The notes under the pieces were generated by a model that searched no databases, had not been told where the DNA came from, and saw only the letters and a list, made by a program, of their open reading frames with translations. The position numbers were made by a program, and so were the translations under genes. A stretch of 64,000 bases of DNA from Deefgea rivuli DSM 18356 (GTDB lineage: Bacteria > Pseudomonadota > Gammaproteobacteria > Burkholderiales > Chitinibacteraceae), in NCBI RefSeq assembly GCF_000620145.1, contig NZ_JHVM01000009.1:1-64000 (forward strand). The letters run 5' to 3'. Positions 1 through 21,410 of the stretch are shown in pieces. Position 1 is the first letter of the stretch; each line of letters opens with the position of its first letter.

Positions 1-53
1 AATAAATAGCAATCGAGTTTGGATTTAGCCACATCAATACCGAGGTAAAACAT
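1..53 (-). CDS. IS110-family transposase, N-terminal 17 residues
   Basis: The reading frame starts with ATG at 53-51, 7 bases after a strong ribosome-binding site (AAAGGAGA, complement of 61-69), and leaves the window at base 1. The translation begins MFYLGIDVAKSKLDCYL, the typical start of the RuvC-like DEDD domain of IS110 transposases. The Asp in GIDVAK is the first catalytic acidic residue of that fold. In this family the enzyme recombines element and target ends guided by a structured RNA from the adjoining non-coding end. Only the start is visible, so intactness cannot be judged. Confidence 0.85.
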   Translation of the reverse strand, partial: MFYLGIDVAKSKLDCYL

Positions 54-74
54 GATGAGAATCTCCTTTAAAAT

Positions 75-222
75 GCCCAATTCGCCCATTTGCCTTGTAC
101 ATGCAGGGTCAAAGCCCTTGGCTACCGTTCAGTGTCTTGACTGGCGAAAGGAGTAAGGTGAAGGGTTCAATCTACCTTGCAAGGTCTGTGCCTTAAAGTG
201 CCGCTCAAGCTCACTTCACCTC
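75..222 (-). ncRNA. Putative IS110 bridge RNA (seekRNA)
   Basis: Transcribed in the transposase direction, this region forms two internal-loop hairpins. Hairpin 1: stem AGGTGAAG/CTTCACCT (214-221 with 156-163) enclosing GCGGCAC (198-204), a small AAGG/CCTT stem-loop (191-194 with 181-184) and AAGGTAG (172-178). GCGGCAC is complementary to the flanking target GTGCCGC (263-269, and 721-727 in the empty copy). AAGGTAG pairs with the other target half (AAAGTAG at 714-720) with one G-T wobble. Hairpin 2: stem TTCGCC/GGCGAA (143-148 with 81-86), inner hairpin AGGG/CCCT (115-118 with 105-108), then TACAAG (94-99), complementary to the element's own terminus plus core (257-262). This order, target loop then donor loop, is that of the IS621 bridge RNA. 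Transcript ends are inferred. Confidence 0.8.
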
Positions 223-227
223 ATGTG

Positions 228-254
228 ATACTAGCTAAGCATCACATTGAACAA
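228..254 (-). promoter_or_regulatory. Possible promoter of the bridge RNA
   Basis: On the minus strand TTGTTC (254-249) and TAGTAT (233-228) are separated by 15 bases. Initiation about 7 bases downstream would fall near 221, exactly where the first stem of the predicted RNA begins. The spacing is short for sigma-70. In circular IS110 intermediates a better -35 may be supplied by the joined right end, which is not visible here. Confidence 0.35.
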
Positions 255-260
255 GATACA

Positions 261-496
261 AGGTGCCGCGCGGCATTAGCGCCGACCCCGCATTGAAAAA
301 TCTCAAAGTTTTAAATCCTAAAATCACCAAGTCGGATAACGTTTTTGGCGGGTTTGGTTTGCGCTGTTCATTTACATTTTGAGCAAAACGGTGCAATTCG
401 CGCAGATTTTGACACCCTACGTATGATGTATTTGCTTGCGGGCTTTTATTTGCAATGCCTAGCTGGCAATACATCAACTTTATTTCAAACCTTGTT
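261..496. repeat. Dispersed repeat, copy A (right part only)
   Basis: Bases 261-496 repeat at 719-950 with only scattered differences (shared: GTGCCGCGCGGCATTAGCGC, then the stretch through TTTTGGCGGGTTTGGTTTGC and the 51-bp palindrome). The left part of this copy is missing because the IS110 element is inserted at its start. Short open frames across the repeat have no credible start or family and are not annotated as genes. Confidence 0.8.
425..475. repeat. 51-bp palindromic repeat, copy 1
   Basis: Starts GATGTATTTGC and ends GCAATACATC, which are inverted repeats of each other, with AATGCCTAGCTGGC before the right arm. Three more copies of exactly the same length lie at 885-935, 1491-1541 and 21089-21139. 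It would form a stem-loop as DNA or RNA. Confidence 0.75.
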
Positions 497-687
497 GAGC
501 TGCGCGAGATCCCTTGTGTCAAGCCGAGCGAGGAACAAGCGGGGCGGGGTTTTTGCGATCAATGTTTGAGAGAGGCCGACGCTTTTGCACTTGAGGCCGA
601 ACGAGTTTTGAGCGCAACCGACCCGATTGTCCGCAGCGAGGGAATCCGACGAAGTCGGACGCAGATACTAGGGGCGCCTTTCTTTTG

Positions 688-721
688 CCTACTTTTCTTT
701 GGCGAAGCAAAGAAAAGTAGG
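688..721. repeat. Perfect 13-bp hairpin inside the dispersed repeat
   Basis: CCTACTTTTCTTT (688-700) and AAAGAAAAGTAGG (709-721) are perfect inverted repeats around an 8-base loop. The IS110 insertion point in copy A corresponds to the outer end of the right arm. No uridine tract follows, so it is not a standard terminator. Confidence 0.85.
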
Positions 722-884
722 TGCCGCGCGGCATTAGCGCCGACCCCATGTTGAAAAATCTCAAAGTTTTAAATCCTAAAATCATCAAGTCGGATAACGT
801 TTTTGGCGGGTTTGGTTTGCGCTGTTCATTTACATTTTGAGCAAAACGCTGTAATTCGCGCAGCTTTTGATACCCGATGATGTA

Positions 885-935
885 GATGTATTTGATTGCA
901 GCTCTTTATCTAAAATGCCTAGCTGGCAATACATC
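885..935. repeat. 51-bp palindromic repeat, copy 2
   Basis: Begins GATGTATTTGATTGC and ends GGCAATACATC. The right half is identical to copy 1 (AATGCCTAGCTGGCAATACA); the middle differs. Confidence 0.75.
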
Positions 936-1055
936 GACCTTATTCTTGAATACGCCGCTTTATTGCTAACGCTGTGCTGGAATAAACCCATAGCCCAATC
1001 GCCCACGATTGGATAAAATCGCGCGCTTAAAAGTCATTGAATCATCGAGAAATTT

Positions 1056-1427
1056 ATGCGCGCACTACGTTGGGTCATCGGTCGGGGTATCTTAGGTTTA
1101 AACGCGGTATTCGCGCCGAAAAAAGCACAACACTCGACTGAGCGCCAAGCTTGGTTGGATCAACAAACCCTATCTTTGGCGCTTTACGAATACGAGGCTT
1201 GCCCGTTTTGCGTCAAGGTTCGCCGTACGATGCGACGACAAGGCCTGAATATTAAAACCATCAATGCCAAACAAGCTGAGCATAAGACAGCCTTAGCCGA
1301 GCAGGGCGGCAAAGTCCAAGTGCCTTGCTTGCGGATCGAAGAAAACCAGCAAGTGCAGTGGTTGTACGAATCGAAAAGTATCATTCAATACTTGGAGCAA
1401 CGTTTTGCCGCTCCAGTAAATGCATAA
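1056..1427 (+). CDS. Glutaredoxin / GST N-terminal domain protein
   Basis: 123 residues with a thioredoxin fold of the glutaredoxin type. It has the redox motif C-P-F-C at residues 49-52, followed by a basic helix (VKVRRTMRR), the cis-proline signature V-P at about 89-90, and a GST-N-like ending ESKSIIQYLE. The first 40 residues precede the fold and begin with a basic, amphipathic stretch (MRALRWVIGRGILGL), which may associate with membrane; there is no clear cleavable signal. The likely role is glutathione-dependent thiol-disulfide exchange, substrate unknown. The gene stands alone between repeats, with only a weak GAGA ribosome-binding site before the ATG. Confidence 0.85.
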   Translation: MRALRWVIGRGILGLNAVFAPKKAQHSTERQAWLDQQTLSLALYEYEACPFCVKVRRTMRRQGLNIKTINAKQAEHKTALAEQGGKVQVPCLRIEENQQVQWLYESKSIIQYLEQRFAAPVNA

Positions 1428-4154: not shown

Positions 4155-5363
4155 TTAAAACACTAAACCCAATAATTTTCGGACTAATTCTTCGAGTGGC
4201 ATCATCGTTAGCGCCAGTGGAATAAGTGGTGCAACGGTGGCGATGGCGAGAAAAAGAATGGCGTCTTTTTTGATCGGCACGGTATTCATCGCTTGCACGA
4301 CATCAAAACTCGCGCCCAAATCGACCAGTGACGACATATCGGGATTGCCCAAGGGTGATTCTTTGGGTTTGCCAGAGCGAAACCATTTTTGATCAAACTC
4401 TCGATTGTGCTGCATTACCAGCAAGCCATATTCGCGCAGTGCATCGCGTTTGGCTTGCGCCAATTGCGGGCGAAAGACCAGTAGCGGCGCCAAAATAAGC
4501 AATTGCACCCAGATGATCATCAGCACAATTTCAATTTTGAAATCGGTGAGCACCGCGCCTTGATAGAAAATACGATTGGCTAGCATCGCCGCCAGCATGG
4601 TGCCGTGCGCGAAGGCGAGCGGGGCGAAAGCATGAAAAGTGCCGCTTAAAAAAGCCAAGCCGCCTAAGCGATCACTGTGGCTGGGCAGCAATTGCAGTTT
4701 GATGCGGGAAACCTGCCATAAAAATCGCGCCCAAATCCAGAGCCGGTAATACCAGCGCGCGACGAGAAATTGAAAAATCGGCAGACTGACGCCAGCATAC
4801 CAATAGCCCGCCAGCGTGAGGCTCAAACCCTCAGCGCCTTGGTGGGCGTACCATGTATTGGTATCGAGCACCATGACGTTGCGCCACAGAAAAATCCCCG
4901 CGCTGTAAACGAGCGCAATCAAAATCAGCTCGGCTTTGATGGAATTTCTAAGCTCAAACGCAGAATGCAGCGCAGTTTCAAATTGTTGCATGGCCTCATT
5001 AGGAATCAGTTGGCGCTGTAAAAACTGCTGCACGACTTTACGCATGCGCCGATGCACCAATAATTCGGCAGCAATCATGATGGGAATGGCGAGCAAAAAG
5101 CGCACATGGACTTCTAAATCATATAAAAACGGAATGGTTGCGCCTTGATACCAACTGCCGCTGAGCAGCGTAATTAGGCAGAGCGGCAGCCAAGCGAGCA
5201 GTGAAATCACGATGATGCGTCGCCACAACAGACCTTCAGCATCGTCAGTCAGATGGGCGCGGCGTAAGAGCTGAAAAAGCGGGCCGCCCAGCACCAATGA
5301 AAAATTGCTTTGTTCTGCTAACAGCTGTTCGCTGAAATACGCGGAAGATGTGGCTTTGGCCAT
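4155..5363 (-). CDS. Multi-pass membrane protein of unknown function
   Basis: 402 residues with about seven hydrophobic segments. The first follows a 50-residue cytoplasmic head (IIVISLLAWLPLCLITLLSG); two lie around 135-200, two around 240-300 and one at the C terminus (AILFLAIATVAPLIPLALTM). Conserved-looking loops include LEVHVRFLLAIP, a PSHSDRLGGLAFL segment and a soluble stretch HNREFDQKWFR. There is no transporter or enzyme motif I recognise. It ends immediately after the shared terminator and has no obvious operon partner; the YdjM-like gene upstream on the same strand is 60 bases away and may be cotranscribed. Confidence 0.7.
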   Translation of the reverse strand: MAKATSSAYFSEQLLAEQSNFSLVLGGPLFQLLRRAHLTDDAEGLLWRRIIVISLLAWLPLCLITLLSGSWYQGATIPFLYDLEVHVRFLLAIPIMIAAELLVHRRMRKVVQQFLQRQLIPNEAMQQFETALHSAFELRNSIKAELILIALVYSAGIFLWRNVMVLDTNTWYAHQGAEGLSLTLAGYWYAGVSLPIFQFLVARWYYRLWIWARFLWQVSRIKLQLLPSHSDRLGGLAFLSGTFHAFAPLAFAHGTMLAAMLANRIFYQGAVLTDFKIEIVLMIIWVQLLILAPLLVFRPQLAQAKRDALREYGLLVMQHNREFDQKWFRSGKPKESPLGNPDMSSLVDLGASFDVVQAMNTVPIKKDAILFLAIATVAPLIPLALTMMPLEELVRKLLGLVF

Positions 5364-5423: not shown

Positions 5424-6011
5424 TTAAGCCATAATCCTGACCCATTGCACGATCATCACGGCGCTGTGTTCCAGCGCCAGCCAACACCAGCGTTGCAGCG
5501 CCATTTGCGCTGGTTGTATCCACGCGTGGCCGGGGCGCTGTAGCGCGACCCACAGAAAATAGCCCACACCAATCCAGCAGCCGCGATAAATCAGTTGCTC
5601 GACCCAACCATCGGCCTTAAATAAATTCAGCGAAAATTTTTGTCGAATCGGCCACAGCAGCGGCACACCCGATGGCGTCAGTAGATCGCCAATAATGTGT
5701 GAAAAATAGCCAATGACTAAGGGCAAAATCGGGATGTTTTGCTGTTCGCGGTGCGTGAGCAGCAGCCAAATAATCACCGCGACCATTAACAGCGAATGCG
5801 TAAAGCCGCGATGACCAAACACCTTGGCAATCGGAATCGAAATATAGGGCACGATGCGGCCAAAGGTCGATTTGGGGTGATCCAAATCGGGCAAGAGGCC
5901 AGCTGCGCCAGCGAGGGCGACTTCATGCACTTGCGGCATACGCTGCAAAATGCCAACACTGCATGCCACCATCATTAAGGCGGCAAAAGCAATGTGGGTG
6001 CGGGCCATCAT
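5424..6011 (-). CDS. YdjM-type membrane-bound metal-dependent hydrolase
   Basis: 195 residues, four to five hydrophobic segments. The metal-binding pattern of the YdjM/DUF457 family is complete: His in MARTHIAF near the start, GLLPDLDHPKS (about 39-49), GHRGFTHS (about 66-73) and a GYFSHIIGDLLTPSGVPLLWP-like stretch after residue 100. Relatives are inner-membrane proteins, some LexA-controlled, with no established substrate. Two adjacent ATG codons make the start uncertain by one residue. It reads in the same direction as the following membrane gene. Confidence 0.85.
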   Translation of the reverse strand: MMARTHIAFAALMMVACSVGILQRMPQVHEVALAGAAGLLPDLDHPKSTFGRIVPYISIPIAKVFGHRGFTHSLLMVAVIIWLLLTHREQQNIPILPLVIGYFSHIIGDLLTPSGVPLLWPIRQKFSLNLFKADGWVEQLIYRGCWIGVGYFLWVALQRPGHAWIQPAQMALQRWCWLALEHSAVMIVQWVRIMA

Positions 6012-20993: not shown

Positions 20994-21082
20994 GTAGGAT
21001 GGGTGGAGCCGTTTTTTTTTTGGCGATACTCATCAATAGGCGTATGAATTTGATGGGTATCGCTTCGCTCCACCCATCCTAC
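20994..21082. repeat. Large cruciform-type palindrome
   Basis: Outer arms GTAGGATGGGTGGAGC (20994-21009) and GCTCCACCCATCCTAC (21067-21082) are perfect 16-bp inverted repeats. Inner arms GCGATACTCATCAA and TTGATGGGTATCGC pair at 13 of 14 positions. A TAGGATGGGTGGAGC-type intergenic repeat is, from general knowledge, widespread in beta- and gammaproteobacteria. It may also terminate the upstream small gene. Confidence 0.85.
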
Positions 21083-21088
21083 AGTGTG

Positions 21089-21139
21089 AATGTATATGAT
21101 TGCAGGCTTTTATTTTCAATGTTTCGCTGGCAATACATC
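21089..21139. repeat. 51-bp palindromic repeat, copy 4
   Basis: Aligns over its full length with the copies near the left edge: AATGTATATGATTGC at the start, CTGGCAATACATC at the end. As at the left edge, it is followed after about 30 bases by the left part of the long dispersed repeat. Confidence 0.7.
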
Positions 21140-21171
21140 TAATTTATTACTTAATCGTCGGTCTGGTGTTT

Positions 21172-21376
21172 GAGATCCCTTGTATCAAGCCGAGCGAGGA
21201 ACAAGCGGCAAGGGGGTTTCGGCGGTTTCTGTTTTGTTAAAACCCGCCGCCTTGCCGATTGTCCGCAGCGAGGGAATCCGACGAAGTCGGACGCAGATAC
21301 TAGGGCGGCCTTCTTTTGCTTACTTTTCTTGGCCGTTCAAGAAAAGTCAGTGCCGCGCGGCATGAGCGCGACCATG
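21172..21376. repeat. Dispersed repeat, copy C
   Basis: Matches 506-740: GAGATCCCTTGTATCAAGCC, CCGCAGCGAGGGAATCCGAC, then the hairpin ACTTTTCTT/AAGAAAAGT (21322-21330 with 21339-21347) and GTGCCGCGCGGCAT. Where copy B has AG (719-720) this copy has CA (21348-21349). The AT-richer right part seen in copies A and B is absent. Confidence 0.8.
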
Positions 21377-21410
21377 TTAATTAGAAAGCTAGAGCTTTAA
21401 GGTAAACATT

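What the first reader, a model, noticed from the sequence alone, without database searches (positions are those of the whole stretch)
75..270. IS110 non-coding end encodes a readable bridge RNA with target and donor guides
Seen directly: on the transposase strand two internal-loop hairpins occur in order. Loop 1 carries GCGGCAC (198-204), complementary to the flanking target GTGCCGC (263-269), and AAGGTAG (172-178), which pairs with the other half of the empty site (AAAGTAG, 714-720) with one G-T wobble. Loop 2 carries TACAAG (94-99), complementary to the element's own end with its core (257-262). Established: IS621 and other IS110-group elements use such a bispecific RNA with a CT core and the same loop order. 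Inference: this is a new, apparently functional example whose guides can be assigned from one locus. It predicts that the unseen right end resembles the segment before the AGGG hairpin (GACACTGAACGGTAGCCA).
Basis: partly seen in the sequence, partly recalled or inferred. Interest (0 to 1): 0.9.

Follow-up and report, generated by a model that had tools for sequence, protein, structure and literature searches.

The report
IS110 bridge RNA, likely mixed-core
The edge of this window is the end of a jumping gene that carries its own RNA address label, a known kind of system; comparison with relatives confirms the label, and in this bacterium the label appears to have been changed to aim at a new genomic repeat with an unusual two-letter crossover sequence.

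Summary
Window 260-54 (minus strand) is the left end of an IS110-group element of a Deefgea species, encoding a bridge RNA (75-247) upstream of a transposase cut by the contig end. A covariance model built from 15 relatives, this genome left out, finds it at 156.8 bits and also finds E. coli IS621's bridge RNA. Guides track insertion sites across 15-16 groups (permutation p<=1e-5); stems covary. The unseen right end, found on three other contigs, ends AGACGGTAT|CT and shares ACGGTA with the predicted left-donor guide. So it is an IS621-type bridge RNA: a known kind, not worth 0.9. The new part is the core. The left target guide reads GCGGCAC-TT; five of six left junctions carry TT, all three right junctions CT, although none of 30 empty sites of the matching subfamily has CT. 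Best reading: natural mixed-core insertion, target core TT, donor core CT, each core staying with its left half, as IS621's top-strand cut predicts. This rests on sequence alone; no RNA or recombination was measured.

The parts
1..53 (-). N-terminal codons of the IS110 transposase (MFYLGIDVAKSKLDCY...), cut by the contig end
   Evidence: Sequence; a slightly longer copy on C17 reads IMFYLGIDVAKSKLDCYLLLDETGSKGKAKVVPNSN, the I lying before the start; two intact 327-aa relatives exceed the cut-offs of PF01548 and PF02371
54..260 (-). Left non-coding end (LE) of the element, 207 nt
   Evidence: Six copies in this genome, the other five 100% identical over query bases 2-209 of 209; aligned with 15 relatives
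253..258 (-). TATCTT, -10-like box; with TTGACG in the right end it would make TTGACG-N17-TATCTT across the joined RE-CT-LE circle
   Evidence: Read from sequence; a promoter is inferred, not tested
75..247 (-). Bridge RNA gene
   Evidence: Covariance model R1 built from 15 relatives without this genome: 156.8 bits, E=5.8e-40, model positions 1-172 of 172; six copies in the genome with the same score
223..247 (-). 5' stem-loop of the bridge RNA
   Evidence: Column map of alignment A2; 5 of 10 pairs with two-sided changes, 74.7% of cells paired
155..222 (-). Target-binding loop: outer stem 205-222/155-169 and apical hairpin 180-195
   Evidence: 8 of 14 outer and 3 of 4 apical pairs with two-sided changes
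196..204 (-). Left target guide GCGGCAC plus core-pairing TT
   Evidence: 9/9 match to five of six left junctions, 8/9 to the window's own; on the best window of an unbiased scan
172..178 (-). Right target guide AAGGTAG (pairs with CTACCTT); followed by AT at 170-171, a possible handshake guide
   Evidence: 7/7 to right junctions on C14 and C11; on the best window of an unbiased scan
76..153 (-). Donor-binding loop: outer stem 143-153/76-86 and apical hairpin 105-118
   Evidence: 4 of 9 and 2 of 4 pairs with two-sided changes
122..128 (-). Left donor guide ACGGTAG, against right-end terminus ACGGTAT
   Evidence: 6/7; right ends seen
94..99 (-). Right donor guide TACAAG, pairs with CTTGTA (core plus LE start)
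   Evidence: 6/6
261..262 (-). Core at the left junction of this copy (CT; TT in the other five copies)
263..269 (-). Left target flank GCGGCAC, end of a dispersed palindromic repeat
712..727 (-). Unoccupied copy of the target repeat: GCGGCAC (721-727), core CT (719-720), ACTTTTC (712-718)

Best explanation
This is the left end of an IS110-group insertion sequence that works like IS621. When the element leaves the chromosome as a circle, its right and left ends join as RE-CT-LE and form a promoter (TTGACG-N17-TATCTT), which transcribes the bridge RNA from about 247 to 75. The RNA's first loop binds the target (left guide GCGGCAC plus core TT; right guide AAGGTAG); the second loop binds the joined ends (ACGGTA on the left, TACAAG on the right). 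The recombinase then inserts the circle at the end of a dispersed palindromic repeat, GCGGCAC-TT-ACYTTTC. Shown by comparison: the anatomy, guide-to-site tracking and stem covariation. Inferred: circle, promoter use, transcription and strand exchange. A further part, held less firmly (0.65): target core TT and donor core CT differ, and after insertion TT stays at the left junction and CT at the right because each top strand is cut 3' of its core; the core-pairing letters can hold both cores by wobble (right-guide G with T or C; left-guide U with A or G). The confidence below is for the bridge-RNA mechanism, not for the mixed core.
For: Recombinase: a 327-aa relative matches IS621 transposase at E=5.2e-63 over residues 2-324; IS621's D11, E60, D102, D105, S241 fall on D7, E60, D102, D105, S245 (my count on the alignment; native numbering from PMC11208158 passages; chain number = native + 2). 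RNA: model R1, this genome left out, hits the window at 156.8 bits and IS621's left end in two E. coli records at 24.9 bits, E=6.6e-5; two loci holding empty repeats but no element give no hit. Guides: an unbiased scan over the RNA alignment puts the best left-target window (excess 1.97 of 7, next 0.56) and right-target window (1.43, next 0.39) on the guides; permutation over 15 and 16 groups gives 5.62 vs 3.40 and 5.92 vs 4.10, p<=1e-5 each. Striking cases: G013b guide GATTGAG with site CTCAATC; Acinetobacter L063 TGAAAGAG with CTCTTTCA. Stems: 22 of 41 pairs with two-sided changes, 0 of 500 shuffles as high. Donor: right ends read ACGGTAT|CT, 3 of 3. Mixed core: left guide core TT in this genome; left junctions TT 5 of 6; right junctions CT 3 of 3 while empty sites of the same subfamily are CT 0 of 30; ACCTT on the right in 2 of 3 occupied against 1 of 43 empty, p=0.0086; and, if the left core is the target's, T second in 6 of 6 occupied against 21 of 43 empty, p=0.027.
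Against: No transcript, circle or recombination was measured. This genome's transposase is seen only as N-terminal and C-terminal pieces: the whole genome has no PF01548 match and two partial PF02371 matches. No left end could be tied to its own right end, because each copy breaks a contig, and the window copy's own right end is not seen. The single-sequence fold is no better than shuffles. Some pairs fit poorly: the right guide matches only 4/7, the permuted level, in G004a, G004c, G027f, G033, L064 and L088, and 5/7 in G004f, G027a, G027b, G027e and G001; the left guide with core matches 5/9 in G027f and 6/9 in G004d and L087, and the automatic columns are out of register in L089 and L065 (4/9). 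The mixed-core claim rests on six left and three right junctions, and the empty cores at those very loci are inferred from repeat subfamily and palindrome partner, not seen; DNA matches to the C14 locus in six other Deefgea genomes end before the repeat.
Confidence: 0.93

Rival explanations
1. The left-end RNA is a cis-acting or antisense regulator of the transposase (as two small RNAs of ISPpu9 are reported to be), not a guide; site preference comes from the protein.
For: ISPpu9, an element inserted in REP sequences, has two regulatory small RNAs (PMC8450116, seen only as the start of its abstract in the listing). The RNA lies directly upstream of the start codon.
Against: Sites follow the loop letters: own guides fit own sites better than foreign guides in 15 and 16 groups. 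Among eight close relatives the guide columns vary most (left guide 0.31, right-guide extension 0.48 mean pairwise difference) against 0.03-0.16 in the other non-core, non-guide regions.
Confidence: 0.03
2. Bridge RNA as in IS621, but no mixed core: the TT at left junctions is drift or the donor core of most copies, and the CT at right junctions is the target's. (A variant within the best explanation, so the two confidences overlap.)
For: Only nine junctions are seen; the window's own copy has CT at the left; IS621 prefers CT on both sides (PMC11208160, passages).
Against: The left guide itself reads TT in all six copies, which are identical over the RNA. The three right junctions have the repeat subfamily in which 0 of 30 empty sites carry CT, and their palindrome partner reads GTAAG, whereas the five CT sites all have GTAGG. 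The five TT left junctions lie in the subfamily with CT in 1 of 34.
Confidence: 0.25
3. The flank-guide match is a by-product: the element picked up flank sequence into its loop by gene conversion or aberrant excision and does not use it to aim.
For: Guides do turn over among near-identical copies (three guide sets among six copies in G004).
Against: Both guides match opposite flanks on opposite strands in fixed register across 15-16 groups; capture of one flank would not give this.
Confidence: 0.02

Closest known systems
IS621 of Escherichia coli (IS110 group; Durrant et al. 2024, PMC11208160; Hiraizumi et al. 2024, PMC11208158)
   Same: Recombinase homology nearly over the full length; bridge RNA in the left end with 5' stem-loop, target loop, donor loop; LE start CTTGTAT; donor terminus ACAGTAT|CT against ACGGTAT|CT; palindromic repeat as target.
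   Different: Target GCGGCAC-TT-ACYTTTC rather than ATCRGGC-CT-AC (IS621 target from PMC11208160 passages); left guide core TT while the donor core stays CT; right guide matching over 7 nt at two of three sites.
ISCro4 recombinase (PDB 9t56)
   Same: Transposase homolog, E=1.5e-58.
   Different: Only the sequence match was seen here; its RNA and target were not compared.
seekRNA of IS1111/IS110 elements (PMC11187229, passages and abstract start)
   Same: Same concept under another name: an RNA from the non-coding region selects the target; promoter formed by joining the ends.
   Different: IS1111 elements have subterminal inverted repeats and, per PMC11208160 section 12, carry the RNA in the right end; here it is in the left end.
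REP-targeting elements ISPpu9, ISPpu10, ISPa11 (Tobes and Pareja 2006, PMC1525189, abstract)
   Same: Insertion into dispersed palindromic repeats.
   Different: Different hosts and repeats; the abstract describes no guide.

Membership tests
IS110 family | DEDD RuvC-like plus Tnp domain with catalytic serine | tested here: met
   Relatives L015 and L016 exceed the cut-offs of PF01548 and PF02371; DEDD and S aligned to IS621 by eye. In this genome D7 is seen on the N-terminal piece and the RQSG serine on the C-terminal piece (start of L010, translated by hand); the middle is not seen and PF01548 has no match in the genome.
IS110 group (as against IS1111) | Long left end with the RNA upstream of the transposase, short right end | tested here: met
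   LE 207 nt; right end 15 nt between stop codon and core
IS621-type bridge RNA | 5' stem-loop, target loop, then donor loop | tested here: met
   the model also finds IS621
IS621-type bridge RNA | Left and right target guides that match the insertion site | tested here: met
   with the poor fits listed under evidence against
IS621-type bridge RNA | Donor guides that match the element's own ends | tested here: met
   ACGGTA 6/7 and TACAAG 6/6; L064 is changed on both sides (ATGGTAT with ATGGTAT; TATAAG with CTTATA), by eye. No donor permutation was run.
IS621-type bridge RNA | CT core shared by target and donor | tested here: not met
   Right-junction core CT 3 of 3; left-junction core TT 5 of 6, and TT in the guide. 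IS621 is reported to work with TT when target, donor and the guide positions are changed together (PMC11208160), so this limits 'identical to IS621', not the mechanism.
IS621-type bridge RNA | Promoter formed at the joined ends | tested here: inconclusive
   TTGACG-N17-TATCTT by sequence only; no transcript data
IS621-type bridge RNA | RNA is made and bound by the recombinase | not testable with these tools
   Needs small-RNA sequencing and a binding assay

The most novel reading that the evidence does not exclude
A natural mixed-core bridge recombination system: the target loop has evolved a TT core while donor and donor loop keep CT, with wobble pairing holding both cores during strand exchange. 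This let the element move onto an abundant repeat family that mostly lacks CT, and its junctions (TT left, CT right) record in a living genome that each core stays with its left half. Surveys that define the core as a sequence repeated at both ends could miss such insertions.
Probability: 0.65. Interest if true: 0.5.

Novelty: new variant of a known kind. Interest (0 to 1): 0.42.

Why it matters
As a bridge RNA it is one more member of a known family, though with clean natural data: guides and sites that change together between species and partly between copies. The mixed core, if confirmed, relaxes the rule that target and donor share a core, widens the sites a bridge recombinase could use, and gives an in vivo trace of which strand's core is kept, a step the structural paper left open (in the passages I read it says that mismatches may be excised and repaired in cells).

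Tried and rejected
Rfam search of window 1-1000 up to E=1: nothing. Single-sequence folding as evidence: not significant, so comparative evidence is used. An empty allele of the C14 site in other Deefgea: in six other genomes the DNA matches to the neighbouring gene end at query 965 or 902, before the repeat (from about 972); the fetched loci L133-L138 were not inspected further. Phage records: two distant hits. Plasmid records: 174 hits, all under 60% identity; not used further. The alternative in which the donor core goes left and the target core right was rejected on the subfamily counts. A handshake-guide reading (AT after the right guide; letters after the right donor guide against target positions 6-7) was looked at by eye; one case (L065) failed, and it is not used as evidence. 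The structure counted is not the bare consensus: I dropped 10 of its 45 pairs (one at the target loop edge, nine inside the donor loop) and took six more pairs of the 5' stem from the single-sequence fold. Rows not in the permutation: L058 (same insertion as G033), L059 and the loci (same elements as loci), L066-L069 (partial), L017 (fragment), L075, L090 and L091 (no left end), L092-L099 (six share one guide and target type by eye; L094 and L098 not tabulated), and five of the six left copies of this genome (same guide); L060 was dropped from the left test because its flank is 4 nt. L061 and L062 (both Massilia) and G013a and G013b were counted as separate groups. That mixed cores are not in print is not shown: I saw none in the titles and abstract starts listed by searches (18 of 19, 20 of 26, 20 of 80, 10 of 10 and 5 of 5 papers listed) or in the sections and passages named; subscription journals and preprints were not searchable.

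Full report
Identity. The window starts inside an insertion sequence. Six copies of its left end and three of its right end were found, all at contig ends of the same 3.71-Mb genome. The genus is Deefgea: genome G001 of the same genus has a contig of the same length (1,250,856) as Deefgea chitinilytica LMG 24817 NZ_WOFE01000001.1, found with the transposase. Intact relatives encode a 327-aa transposase, homologous over residues 2-324 to the solved IS621 recombinase, E=5.2e-63. In this genome itself PF01548 has no match and PF02371 two partial ones, as expected if every copy is broken by contig ends.

Anatomy. On the minus strand 261-262 is the core, 260-54 the left non-coding end, and the transposase starts at 53. 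The right end on contigs C1, C14 and C11 reads ...CTTGACGAACAAGACGGTAT|CT|ACYTTTCTTG, with 15 nt from stop codon to core. Joining right and left ends gives TTGACG-N17-TATCTT, a promoter-like pair split between the two ends; the -35-like box overlaps the stop codon. This is inference from sequence.

The RNA. Sixteen left ends (this one and 15 of relatives) were aligned. A structure with 5' stem-loop, target loop and donor loop, drawn from the consensus fold with changes told under Tried and rejected, was counted: 87.4% of cells paired, 22 of 41 pairs with two-sided changes against 8.7 in shuffles, 0 of 500 as high; sliding the partners by 1-3 columns gives 3 to 12. The structure was derived in part from the same alignment, which favours it in the slide control. 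The window's sequence alone folds no better than shuffles. A covariance model made from the 15 relatives without this genome was run on 16 sources: 13 matched at E<=1, 12 of them below 0.001, among them the window (75-247, 156.8 bits) and both copies of IS621's left end (24.9 bits, E=6.6e-5); the three without a match were L098, an IS110 relative, and L007 and L008, which hold empty repeats and no element. E-values of this model are rough.

Guides against sites. Twenty-five elements of relatives with both junctions were tabulated (L060 has only 4 nt of left flank) and one row for this genome was added, whose right flank comes from C14/C11. Scanning ungapped 7-column windows of the RNA alignment present in at least 18 of 26 rows, the window that best tells own from foreign left flanks starts at zero-based column 101, the left target guide (matched 5.64 of 7, mismatched 3.67, excess 1.97; next best 0.56), and for right flanks at 134, the right target guide (5.69 vs 4.26, excess 1.43; next 0.39). 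Permuting guides among groups 100,000 times: left, 15 groups, observed 5.62, permuted mean 3.40, maximum 5.17; right, 16 groups, 5.92, 4.10, 5.69. Poor fits are listed under evidence against. Among eight close relatives the left guide (0.31 mean pairwise difference) and the right-guide extension (0.48) vary several times more than the donor loop sides (0.04-0.05), while the right-guide letters next to and at the core do not vary. The six copies in G004 carry three guide sets although their transposases are 98-100% identical to one of them.

The target in this genome. All six left ends abut GCCGCGCGGCAC, the end of a dispersed palindromic repeat; a pattern for the empty site has 54 matches in the genome with up to two mismatches, against 1 for the reversed pattern. 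From 63 loci fetched, 43 distinct empty sites of the form GCGGCAC-NN-RCYTT were read: cores TG 19, TT 16, CT 5, TC 2, TA 1. Several relatives sit at other palindromic repeats (TTCCACC-CT in five of six G004 copies, GCCCAAC-CT in G001, GCCCACC-CT in the two Massilia), the six G027 sites are more varied, and IS621 in the two records fetched sits at REP ends.

The core. In 14 of the 15 aligned relatives the left guide's core letters read CT (the other, L089, is out of register); here they read TT. Five of six left junctions read GCGGCAC-TT-TGTATC and the window's own reads -CT-. All three right junctions read CT. Two records in the repeats suggest where each core came from. First, the three right junctions belong to the AACGGCC subfamily, in which 0 of 30 empty sites have CT; by arithmetic, 3 of 3 against 0 of 30 has a chance of 1 in 5456. 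Second, the palindrome partner of the core is GTAGG at CT sites (5 of 5) but GTAAG at these three. So the CT at the right is the donor's. Conversely the five TT left junctions lie in the TCGCGC subfamily (TT 14, TG 16, TC 2, CT 1, TA 1 of 34) and the window's CT junction in the CGGCGC subfamily (CT 4 of 7), as expected if the left core is the target's. In IS621 the top strands are cut just 3' of the core and exchanged (PMC11208158, passages), which puts the target core left and the donor core right on the top strand; that paper adds that mismatches may be repaired in cells. The junctions here agree with the top-strand outcome. On this reading occupied sites all have T second (6 of 6 against 21 of 43 empty, p=0.027), as the protein contact with that T in IS621 would predict (same passages), and they prefer ACCTT on the right (2 of 3 against 1 of 43, p=0.0086), which the 7-nt right guide matches exactly.

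What is known. Durrant et al. (PMC11208160; abstract, sections 6, 12, 19, 21 and passages read) established the mechanism, predict bridge RNAs in 85.7% of IS110s, and tested AT, GT and TT cores by changing target, donor and the guide positions together; these were generally less efficient, and a 7-bp right guide helped. Their boundary search identifies the core as a sequence repeated near the element's end and keeps hits whose core is concordant between query and target (section 19), and prefers CT boundaries (section 21); my inference is that mixed cores could have been set aside. In what I read no natural mixed core is described.

Verdict. Bridge RNA: secure, a known kind. Mixed core: likely (about 0.65), based on nine junctions, and testable. 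Interest 0.42.

Noticed in passing
window 261-302, 384-760, about 1493-1554 and about 21075-21378: Copies of a dispersed repeat family with a palindromic end; 57 matches to window 1-900 were listed in this genome (some are the element itself), and a query holding the repeat gave 10-26 matches in each of six other Deefgea genomes against 59 here. Origin unknown.
   Followed up: partly
L070, L076, L079, L081, L083, L085 (genome G004): Six near-identical element copies carry three guide sets, as if the two target guides turn over independently of the rest.
   Followed up: partly
L084 (genome G027), reverse complement, 1277-1306: A copy with a 15-nt duplication of its left end, CTTGTATCTTGTTCC twice; L086 has a one-base shift between target and core.
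   Followed up: no
L093 (genome G372), upstream of the transposase: GGTCAGACGGTAT-CT-CGTATC: what looks like a right end directly abutting a left end, as in a circle junction or tandem copy.
   Followed up: no
window 1056-1427, 1612-2409, 5424-6011: Neighbouring genes: a small glutaredoxin/GST-N-like protein, a DUF1275 protein and a YdjM-like membrane protein.
   Followed up: no
window 4155-5363: A 402-aa ORF without any Pfam match at E 0.001.
   Followed up: no
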